Program-made: the position numbers and the translations under genes
DNA from: Catellicoccus marimammalium M35/04/3
GTDB taxonomy: Bacteria; Bacillota; Bacilli; Lactobacillales; Catellicoccaceae
Length of the DNA: 64,000 bases
NCBI RefSeq assembly: GCF_000313915.1
Contig: NZ_AMYT01000017.1
Location: forward strand, 186,001 to 250,000
Direction of reading: 5' to 3'
Shown here: piece by piece, positions 8,868-29,443 of the stretch
Numbering within the stretch: position 1 is the stretch's first letter
Layout of the letters: each line of letters starts with the position of its first letter
Notes under the pieces: generated by a model
What the model saw: only the letters and a program-made list of their open reading frames with translations
Told to the model about the DNA's origin: nothing
Database searches by the model: none

Positions 8868-9560
8868 ATGACACAAAAAGTATTAGTAGTAGATGATGAA
8901 CCTTCGATTGTCACTTTACTTACCTATAATTTAGAAAAAGAAGGATATCAAACGGATGTGGCAGAAGACGGAGAAACTGCTTACCAATTAGCATTAAAAG
9001 AATCTTATGACTTCATCTTATTAGATTGGATGTTACCCAAACTAGATGGAATGGAAGTTGTTAAAAAATTACGCCAACAACATGTCGAAACTCCTATTAT
9101 TATGCTTACAGCAAAAGAGGATACCATTGACCGTATCATTGGGTTAGAAATGGGAGCTGATGATTATATGGTGAAGCCTTTTAGCCCAAGAGAAGTCATT
9201 GCCCGTATGAAAGCAATTCAAAGAAGGATGAAAACAACTTCTCCTGTCAAAAACGAAATACAAAATGGACCAATTGTAGTTCATATGGATACAAAACAAG
9301 TTTTTATTTCTGGAAAAGAAATTTCTTTACGTAAAACAGAATATAAATTATTGCTTTGCTTTTTACAACATCTCGATGAGCCACTTTCTCGTGATTATTT
9401 ATTAGAAAAAATTTGGCATACAGATTTTGTTGGAGAATCAAGAATTGTTGATGTACACGTCAGTGCTTTGCGTGAAAAAATTGAAGAGAATCCTAAAAAA
9501 CCTCAATATTTACAAACAGTACGAGGGATTGGATATCGGATGGTAAAAATCGATGAGTAA
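8868..9560 (+). CDS. phoP: PhoP-like OmpR-family response regulator
   Basis: A 230-residue response regulator. The receiver domain (1-120) has the acidic pair DD at 9-10, phosphoacceptor Asp53 in LLDWMLP and Lys in VKPF near 103. The winged-helix DNA-binding domain (about 135-228) ends in RGIGYRM. The kinase overlaps its 3' end by 8 bp. The PhoP assignment rests mainly on the partner kinase. No pst genes are beside it, so the stimulus is not shown by context. Confidence 0.88.
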   Translation: MTQKVLVVDDEPSIVTLLTYNLEKEGYQTDVAEDGETAYQLALKESYDFILLDWMLPKLDGMEVVKKLRQQHVETPIIMLTAKEDTIDRIIGLEMGADDYMVKPFSPREVIARMKAIQRRMKTTSPVKNEIQNGPIVVHMDTKQVFISGKEISLRKTEYKLLLCFLQHLDEPLSRDYLLEKIWHTDFVGESRIVDVHVSALREKIEENPKKPQYLQTVRGIGYRMVKIDE

Positions 9561-27884: not shown

Positions 27885-27925
27885 TTACAAAAAAAAGGTT
27901 AGTGAAATTCACTAACCTTTATCTT
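27885..27925 (-). terminator. Intrinsic terminator of the Apf-like gene
   Basis: The arms AAAGGTTAGTGAA and TTCACTAACCTTT form a long hairpin with TTTTTTTT following on the minus strand. Confidence 0.88.
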
Positions 27926-27936
27926 TTCTTATCTTA

Positions 27937-28650
27937 TTAATACCAACCGTTTGCTTCGTGGAAAGCTTTCGCTTTTGACCAGCTACCGTAACGTTGTTTT
28001 ACATAACGTTCAGCTACACGTTCTTGGTTTGCTGCAGAGTAATCTCCGTTTAAGTAAGCAGCGTCTAATTGGTATTTACCAATGTAACGACCGTTACGAG
28101 CGTTGTAGTTGTTTGTTGATTCTTTCATTGCAATCCATGATTTTGCACTTGCTTCGCTACCTGAATGTTGAGGTGCTTGGTAAGTATTTTGTTGTTTTGG
28201 CGCTTGATAAGTTTGTTGTTGCTTAGGAGCTTGGTATGTTTGCTGTGGAGCAACATTTTGTTTTGGCGCTTGGTAAGTATTTTGTTGTTTTGGTGCAGTT
28301 GCTTTTGGTGTAGCTTTTACTGCTTTTGGTGTAGCTTTCACTGTTTGTGCTTTTGCTACTGATTTATAAGTATTTGTTGATTTTTTAACAGATTTTGTAT
28401 CATTTGCATTTTCAGGAATTGTAACCTTTTCACCCACAAAAATCATGTTTGGGTTAGCAATATTATTTTTTTCAACAATCGCTTGTACTAAACTTGCGTC
28501 TCCAGCAAATTTACGAGAAATTTTGTATAGAGTATCGCCTTTTTGAACTGTGTAAACAGTATCTGCTTTTGCGTCTCCACTTGTCATGCATACGCCAATT
28601 CCTGCCGCTGCTAATACAGTTCCTAATACTAGTGATTTGTTTGCTTTCAT
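27937..28650 (-). CDS. Secreted LysM protein with Apf-like C-terminal domain
   Basis: A 237-residue exported cell-wall protein. The signal peptide is residues 1-29, with probable cleavage after AKA. One LysM domain (about 32-77) binds peptidoglycan. A low-complexity linker (about 100-166) holds KATPKA and TYQAPKQ repeats. The C-terminal module (about 167-237, WIAMKESTNNYNARNG to AFHEANGWY) matches the aggregation-promoting-factor family, whose fold is lysozyme-like and probably acts on cell wall. The ATG follows AAAGGAG. A WalR-type site lies about 120 bases upstream, suggesting control by the cell-wall two-component system. Confidence 0.88.
   Translation of the reverse strand: MKANKSLVLGTVLAAAGIGVCMTSGDAKADTVYTVQKGDTLYKISRKFAGDASLVQAIVEKNNIANPNMIFVGEKVTIPENANDTKSVKKSTNTYKSVAKAQTVKATPKAVKATPKATAPKQQNTYQAPKQNVAPQQTYQAPKQQQTYQAPKQQNTYQAPQHSGSEASAKSWIAMKESTNNYNARNGRYIGKYQLDAAYLNGDYSAANQERVAERYVKQRYGSWSKAKAFHEANGWY
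28165..28300 (-). repeat. In-gene repeats coding the TYQAPKQ linker
   Basis: Four imperfect in-frame copies encode TYQAPxQ, with shorter QQ/NT spacers, in the linker of the Apf-like protein. Similar codons recur, so copy number may vary between strains. Confidence 0.75.
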
Positions 28651-28747
28651 AAAATAATGATCTCCTTTGTTTGTAATCTTCTTTTTTCTTCTCTTTTAAC
28701 TACTGTCTTAGGATATCATGATTTTCTATTTCATAGTTAAACATCAG

Positions 28748-28785
28748 TTTACAAAACGATAACGTTTTATTACAAAATGATTACA
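28748..28785 (-). promoter_or_regulatory. WalR (YycF) box upstream of the Apf-like gene
   Basis: On the minus strand TGTAAT-N5-TGTAAT (28769-28785) matches the WalR consensus TGTWAH-N5-TGTWAH exactly. A third half-site TGTAAA at 28748-28753 begins 21 bases after the second, so it falls on the same helical face. The site lies immediately after the nth stop codon. Confidence 0.65.
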
Positions 28786-28786
28786 T

Positions 28787-29443
28787 CTAGGATTCTTTTT
28801 TCTCGGCTACTTCTGATTCATAATATAAACATTCCTTTGTAAATGGACATTGATCGCATTTTGGTTTTTTGGCCGTACATAAATATCGACCAAAATAAAT
28901 TAATTGATGATGCAAATGATTCCATGTCTCTTTGGGCATAATAGAAGTAATGGTTTTTTCTACTTCATCTACTGAAGCATCTAAAGGAACAATTTGTAGA
29001 CGCTTAGCAATTCGTTGAATGTGCGTATCTACCGCAAATGCTGGAATATTAAAAGCCACACTTAATACTACATTCGCTGTTTTTCTTCCTACTCCCGGTA
29101 AACTCATTAATTGTTTACGATCGGCTGGAACTTTTCCACCAAATTCTTCTACTAATTTTTGACTACAAGCAATAATATTTTTAGCTTTATTTCGATAAAG
29201 GCCAATCGTTTTAATTTTTGAGATTACATCTTCTATTGAAGCATTGGCCAATTTTTCAGGTGTCGGATAAGAAGCAAACAAACTAGGTGTAGCCTTATTT
29301 ACTGCCACATCTGTAGTTTGTGCACTTAAAATCACTGCAATTAATAACTGAAAAGTAGTTTCATAATGCAAAGCTACCGTAGCATCTTTATATACTTGGG
29401 ATACTGCTGTAATCAATTTGCGATTTTCCTCTTTTGAACGCAT
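28787..29443 (-). CDS. nth: Endonuclease III (DNA glycosylase/AP lyase)
   Basis: A base-excision repair enzyme of 218 residues acting on oxidised pyrimidines. The helix-hairpin-helix LPGVGRKTANVV carries the catalytic Lys, and VDTHIQR the catalytic Asp. The iron-sulfur cluster Cys pattern C-x6-C-x2-C-x5-C is at the C-terminus. The start is the ATG at 29443, with AGGAGG 5 bases upstream. It lies a few bases after dnaD, a conserved pairing. Confidence 0.96.
   Translation of the reverse strand: MRSKEENRKLITAVSQVYKDATVALHYETTFQLLIAVILSAQTTDVAVNKATPSLFASYPTPEKLANASIEDVISKIKTIGLYRNKAKNIIACSQKLVEEFGGKVPADRKQLMSLPGVGRKTANVVLSVAFNIPAFAVDTHIQRIAKRLQIVPLDASVDEVEKTITSIMPKETWNHLHHQLIYFGRYLCTAKKPKCDQCPFTKECLYYESEVAEKKES

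What the first reader, a model, noticed from the sequence alone, without database searches (positions are those of the whole stretch)
28748..28785. Exact WalR box with a helically phased third half-site before the Apf-like gene
TGTAAT-N5-TGTAAT matches the WalR consensus perfectly, and TGTAAA occurs 21 bases later. The target gene encodes a LysM cell-wall protein with a lysozyme-like domain, the type of gene the essential WalRK system controls. The box sits immediately after nth, so the intergenic DNA is dedicated to the downstream gene.
Basis: partly seen in the sequence, partly recalled or inferred. Interest (0 to 1): 0.5.

Follow-up and report, generated by a model that had tools for sequence, protein, structure and literature searches.

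The report
WalR-type operator array before apf
The DNA in front of a cell-wall gene of a gull-gut bacterium carries evenly spaced binding sites of the kind read by the wall regulator WalR, set at a fixed distance from the promoter; the same layout recurs before related genes in many species, so this looks like an ordinary but well conserved switch for wall-remodelling genes.

Summary
In detail: TGTAAT-N5-TGTAAT lies at 28785-28769 (-), TGTAAA starts 21 bases on, 1 bp past nth and 119 bp before apf. A single strict WalR box is not unusual: 0.87 are expected in 64 kb, and the motif is not enriched genome-wide (17 against 29 for the backwards control). The 'third half-site' is the key one: it lies exactly 35 bp before the TG of an extended -10 (TGATATCCT). 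That spacing recurs at the second apf gene and the PcsB-type gene of the same genome, in 54 of 77 usable apf upstream regions of relatives and 11 of 11 selected PcsB-type ones. PcsB/GbpB and LysM genes are published VicR/WalR targets in streptococci. Best reading: a WalR-activated promoter with a helically phased operator array. No binding or expression evidence exists for this organism. New member of a known kind.

The parts
28780..28785 (-). half-site 1, TGTAAT (67 bp before the TG of the extended -10)
   Evidence: sequence; chain
   Evidence: sequence; chain
   Evidence: chain; CG first letter is seen in a footprinted VicR site at S. mutans gbpB (PMC4168254 Table 1)
   Evidence: same position filled in 54 of 77 usable apf relatives
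28738..28743 (-). possible degenerate half-site TGTTTA (25 bp before TG); the PcsB-type gene has the same letters at the same place
   Evidence: sequence; no test of its own
28728..28734 (-). conserved block ATGAAAT, 16 bp before TG
   Evidence: same offset in 42 of 56 anchored apf promoters
28710..28718 (-). extended -10, TGATATCCT; expected transcription start near 28703 (inferred)
   Evidence: fixed spacing to half-site 4 and conservation
28662..28668 (-). ribosome-binding site AAAGGAG of apf1
   Evidence: sequence
27937..28650 (-). apf1: secreted LysM protein with Apf C-terminal domain, 237 aa
28787..29446 (-). nth, endonuclease III, upstream gene in the same direction
27894..27920 (.). 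terminator-like stem-loop after apf1 (both strands)

Best explanation
The region is the promoter of apf1. Phosphorylated WalR, the response regulator of the WalRK wall-homeostasis system, most likely binds a run of four or more direct-repeat half-sites (TGTAAT, TGTAAT, CGTTAT, TGTAAA) spaced about 10.5 bp, so that two or more WalR dimers line up on one face of the DNA. The last half-site lies 35 bp before the TG of an extended -10, at about -50 to -45 from the expected start, just upstream of where a -35 would be; no sigma-70-type promoter with a -35 was found there. WalR would act as an activator that makes up for the weak -35. Shown: the sequence, the phasing, the fixed spacing and its conservation, the presence of WalRK. 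Inferred: that WalR is the protein, that it activates, where transcription starts.
For: Four-site phased chain, 0 of 20,000 shuffles. Half-site at exactly 35 bp from an extended -10 in apf1, apf2 and the PcsB-type gene: 3 of the 4 intergenic matches among 19 in the genome. Same spacing in 54 of 77 usable apf relatives, 40 of 60 nonredundant, and in 11 of 11 selected PcsB-type upstream regions, shuffle maximum 1. walR over its family cut-off, DNA-binding domain almost identical to solved WalR/VicR domains. WalR sites upstream of the -35 go with activation in S. aureus (PMC10746227). LysM genes are VicR targets in S. mutans and S. pneumoniae. No sigma-70 -35/-10 pair was found on this strand in the gap.
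Against: No binding or expression data for this organism. Strict N5 box in 0 of 80 relatives; the enterococcal pair has a 10-bp step, while one added base in the spacer abolished binding at B. subtilis yocH (cited in PMC4168254). Consensus not enriched genome-wide. Other OmpR-family regulators are present. Most lactobacilli in the set lack the module.
Confidence: 0.72

Rival explanations
1. Another OmpR-family regulator of the same genome (the PhoP-like one encoded in this window, or the VanR-like one) reads the array; the WalR-like letters reflect the recognition shared within this family.
For: Six OmpR-type response regulators match the YycF model in this genome. The Bacillus PhoP box is nearly the reverse complement of the WalR box (recalled). 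The 10-bp step in enterococci departs from the strict N5 rule.
Against: The repeats read TGTWAH towards the gene, whereas the pstS-type gene of this genome has its repeats the other way round. The same geometry is at PcsB-type genes, known VicR targets. Apf and PcsB genes are wall genes, not phosphate genes.
Confidence: 0.17
2. CroR, the enterococcal wall-stress regulator, controls these promoters.
For: CroRS governs envelope genes in E. faecalis (PMC9426447, passages).
Against: The published CroR motif TTTATTAA is in 0 of 51 anchored promoters 15-80 bp before TG; its six-base core TTTATT in 14 of 51 at no fixed place. No croR orthologue was identified in this genome; the nearest VanR-type regulator was not tested further.
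Confidence: 0.04
3. The box is a chance match in AT-rich DNA and regulates nothing.
For: One strict box per 64 kb is expected; genome-wide the motif is below its backwards control; strict box absent co-oriented in 80 of 80 relatives.
Against: Four-site phased chain, fixed 35-bp spacing across genera, recurrence at apf2 and the PcsB-type gene.
Confidence: 0.04

Closest known systems
WalR (YycF/VicR) box TGTWAH-N5-TGTWAH of B. subtilis, S. aureus and S. mutans
   Same: Half-site letters, direct repeat with 5-bp spacer, wall-gene target, position upstream of the core promoter
   Different: Four or more phased half-sites here, one beginning with C; relatives use a 4-bp spacer; fixed 35-bp distance to an extended -10
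S. mutans gbpB (PcsB) promoter, VicR-footprinted TGTAAT-N5-CGTAAT (PMC4168254)
   Different: There the box lies at 35 and 24 bp from TG, in the window it extends upstream from 35; the S. mutans promoter itself was not in hand
S. mutans lysM (SMU.2147c) and S. pneumoniae spr0096, VicR-controlled LysM genes
   Same: LysM wall protein under VicR (PMC3595261, PMC3343019, passages)
   Different: Orthology to apf1 not tested; promoters not compared
Bacillus-type PhoP box (TTAACA repeats, recalled)
   Same: Direct repeats at about 11 bp, often in tandem
   Different: Opposite orientation; different target genes

Membership tests
WalR-regulated promoter | Direct repeat TGTWAH-N5-TGTWAH | tested here: met
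   TGTAATCATTTTGTAAT, 0 mismatches
WalR-regulated promoter | A WalR with the conserved DNA-binding domain in the genome | tested here: met
   437.5 bits, cut-off 340; near-identical DNA-binding domain
WalR-regulated promoter | Site upstream of the core promoter of a wall-metabolism gene | tested here: met
   the promoter itself is predicted, not mapped
WalR-regulated promoter | The same box conserved co-oriented upstream of orthologues | tested here: not met
   strict box 0 of 80. The half-sites in another arrangement and the 35-bp spacing are conserved, so this lowers the claim about the box, not about a WalR-type array; the strict box is not itself a requirement in published VicR sites (PMC4168254 Table 1)
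WalR-regulated promoter | WalR binds and expression depends on WalRK | not testable with these tools
   needs footprint and depletion
PhoP-regulated promoter | TTWACA-type repeats on the coding strand (recalled consensus) | tested here: not met
   here the repeats read TGTWAH on the coding strand; the opposite orientation is seen at the pstS-type gene
CroR-regulated promoter | Motif TTTATTAA in the promoter | tested here: not met
   0 of 51 anchored promoters

The most novel reading that the evidence does not exclude
WalR-activated promoters of Lactobacillales follow a lattice rule that is not stated in the papers I saw: WalR half-sites sit on a grid of about 10.5 bp locked to the extended -10 (offsets about 13, 24, 35, 45, 56, 66), position 35 is always filled, and each promoter fills a different subset of the rest with 4- or 5-bp spacers. 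The classical two-site N5 box would be only one filling of a longer grid on which WalR lines up, and regulons could be found by geometry rather than by the box.
Probability: 0.4. Interest if true: 0.55.

Novelty: new member of a known kind. Interest (0 to 1): 0.38.

Why it matters
WalRK is the essential wall-homeostasis system of low-GC Gram-positive bacteria, and its regulon is usually guessed from a degenerate box that matches by chance about once per 64 kb here. Adding a fixed distance to the extended -10 leaves four intergenic matches in this 1.28-Mb genome, three of them before wall genes, so it offers a sharper, testable way to list WalR-activated genes in enterococci and their relatives.

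Tried and rejected
Rejected or weak: (1) genome-wide enrichment of TGTWAH-N5-TGTWAH: 17 matches, backwards control 29; by the crude ORF caller, 9 of the 17 lie inside ORFs, 1 overlaps an ORF start and 7 are intergenic. (2) The strict box as the conserved element: co-oriented in 0 of 80; the reverse orientation in 8 of 80, 7 of them lactobacilli. (3) The module with a second half-site at N4 or N5 as a regulon finder in 14 genomes: 7 and 3 matches, near the control counts; only one in each search is an apf gene. (4) CroR motif. (5) An inverted repeat TTTACC/GGTAAA over the -10: 2 of 56 rows in strict form. (6) RNA element: no Rfam match at 27900-29000. (7) A circular periodicity test gave R 0.79 at 10.5 bp, and 0.49 (P 0.0008 against uniform positions) without the three commonest offsets; but reverse-strand half-sites, many of which overlap the forward ones, gave 0.66, so this is weak support. 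(8) The TGNTAVAAT scan of 14 genomes: 27 matches, 18 intergenic, 14 of these before PcsB-type genes (one of them broken); the pattern was drawn from such promoters, so this is not independent. (9) Other LysM and NlpC/P60 genes of this genome: of the six stretches fetched only the PcsB-type one shows the module.

Rows dropped: apf set 80 -> 77 (L090 and L097 with misplaced starts, L115 with masked bases) -> 60 nonredundant. L055 had only 189 bases upstream. PcsB set: 16 upstream regions (15 loci given) -> 11 chosen by N-terminus; dropped were three second ORFs (in L175, L161, L166) and two in L169; L179, L184 and L177 gave no region by the script's filter, though the G007 and G022 PcsB-type promoters later showed the module.

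Full report
What is there. On the - strand the 136-bp gap between nth (stop at 28787-28789) and apf1 (start 28650) begins, 1 bp after the nth stop, with TGTAAT-CATTT-TGTAAT (28785-28769); TGTAAA follows 21 bp after the second half-site (28753-28748). apf1 encodes a secreted LysM protein with the aggregation-promoting-factor C-terminal domain (NF052398, 206.7 bits, cut-off 170). The genome is very probably Catellicoccus marimammalium: contigs of 308,478 and 153,794 bases in G000 equal the largest contig and the N50 of the genome announcement (PMC3569323, whole text).

Is it more than chance. One strict consensus box is expected by chance in a window of this size (0.87), and the consensus is not enriched in the genome (17 matches, 29 for the backwards control). 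The box alone is therefore weak evidence. With the looser half-site [CT]GTNAN (the pneumococcal form, recalled) the gap holds four co-oriented half-sites at 0, 11, 21 and 32 bp: TGTAAT, TGTAAT, CGTTAT, TGTAAA. No shuffle of 20,000 gave four (maximum three), and the window has no other chain longer than two. A degenerate TGTTTA follows at 42.

Conservation. Among 80 named apf relatives (Enterococcus, Vagococcus, Tetragenococcus, Kurthia, lactobacilli and others) none has the strict co-oriented N5 box in the upstream region examined. But many of these relatives, chiefly enterococci and their kin, carry another arrangement of the same half-sites: a pair at a 10-bp step and a further one 20-21 bp beyond. 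In 60 nonredundant upstream regions, co-oriented half-site pairs lie 10 bp apart in 34, 20 in 18, 21 in 14, 30 in 15 and 31 in 14, against shuffle means near 0.5 and maxima of 3-4; 11 bp is not among the enriched steps. These arrays are anchored: a half-site begins exactly 35 bp before the TG of an extended -10 (TGNTANNNT) in 56 of 82 rows (80 relatives plus the two own genes), always 35 although 34 and 36 were allowed. Counted over all spacings it is 54 of 77 usable relatives and 40 of 60 nonredundant ones, shuffle maximum 1. A block ATGAAAT also sits at a fixed 16 bp before the TG in 42 of 56 rows; apf1 has the block, apf2 does not.

The same genome tells the same story. A second apf gene (G000:C15, about 279.1-279.7 kb; NF052398) has TGTAAC at 66 and 55, TGTTAG at 46, CGTTAT at 35, and possibly TGTTGC at 24 and TGTCAT at 14 (sequence; 35, 55 and 66 computed, the others counted by hand). 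The PcsB/SagA-type NlpC/P60 gene (G000:C19) has TGTAAT at 35, TGTTTA at 25 and TGTTAA at 13 before TGTTATACT (sequence; the last two counted by hand); its best family model is PcsB, below that model's cut-off (110 of 450 bits). Scanning the whole genome for half-site-N29-TGNTANNNT gave 19 matches (backwards control 24); 15 lie inside ORFs, and the 4 intergenic ones stand before apf1, apf2, the PcsB-type gene and one gene of another kind, which I read as a HAD-type phosphatase from its DIDDT motif.

Which regulator. PcsB/GbpB is a published VicR (WalR) target. The 35-bp spacing, found first in apf promoters, then held in 11 of 11 selected PcsB-type upstream regions of relatives (9 of 9 nonredundant). 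The same table lists an N15 pair (copY), the two-turn distance seen here. WalR of this genome scores 437.5 bits in its family model (cut-off 340), its gene is followed by a sensor-kinase gene read as walK, and its DNA-binding domain is almost identical to solved YycF, VicR and WalR domains through the recognition-helix region. In S. aureus, WalR sites upstream of the -35 go with activation, whatever their orientation (PMC10746227, passages); the array here lies at about -82 to -45 from the expected start. VicR binds the lysM promoter in S. mutans (PMC3595261, passages), and spr0096, a LysM gene, is described as upregulated by VicR in S. pneumoniae (PMC3343019, passages; the primary paper was not held). 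In S. gallolyticus, gallocin-resistant mutants fell in walRK and in an apf-type gene (PMC10100652, passages). Whether spr0096 or SMU.2147c are orthologues of apf1 was not tested.

What speaks against. There is no binding or expression result for this organism. The 10-bp step of the enterococcal arrays departs from the N5 rule that was strict for B. subtilis yocH (as cited in PMC4168254). Most lactobacilli among the relatives lack the module, and several have the box in the opposite orientation. Other OmpR-family regulators are present; a PhoP-like one is the serious rival, although the pstS-type gene of this genome carries its box the other way round. The CroR motif is absent from the 51 anchored promoters.

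Verdict. An ordinary kind of switch (a WalR-type activated promoter of a wall gene), correctly spotted, with its anatomy revised: at least four half-sites rather than three, and the promoter-proximal one, at a fixed distance from an extended -10, is the conserved core. A grid rule for WalR promoters was not found in the papers I saw; the searches were made, in an open-licence library that lacks the primary pneumococcal paper, so its novelty is uncertain.

Noticed in passing
L011/L012 (G000:C15:94190-94217, outside the window): Three TGTAAC half-sites at 11-bp steps lie in the opposite orientation between a TATAAT-type promoter and the start of an NlpC/P60 gene, a place where WalR would be expected to repress by the S. 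aureus rule.
   Followed up: partly
L009 (G000:C11:135146-135162, outside the window): A gene that looks like pstS has the repeat in the opposite orientation (ATTACA-N5-ATTACA on the coding strand), as expected for a PhoP-type box.
   Followed up: no
L114, L115, L116, L125: Limosilactobacillus-type apf genes carry TGTAAA-N5-TGTAAT on the non-coding strand 123-135 bp upstream, perhaps a different arrangement of the same control.
   Followed up: no
window 28728-28734 and apf relatives: ATGAAAT is fixed 16 bp before the TG of the extended -10 in 42 of 56 anchored apf promoters, in the -35 region; it does not resemble a -35 and is unexplained.
   Followed up: partly
L195 (G000:C11:153612-153655): The only intergenic match of the 35-bp module that is not before a wall gene stands before a HAD-type phosphatase-like gene.
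   Followed up: no
window 8874-9542 (+): A PhoP/PhoB-like response regulator gene followed by a sensor-kinase gene lies in this window.
   Followed up: partly
L184 (G022): A PcsB-type gene interrupted by several stop codons still has the upstream module.
   Followed up: no
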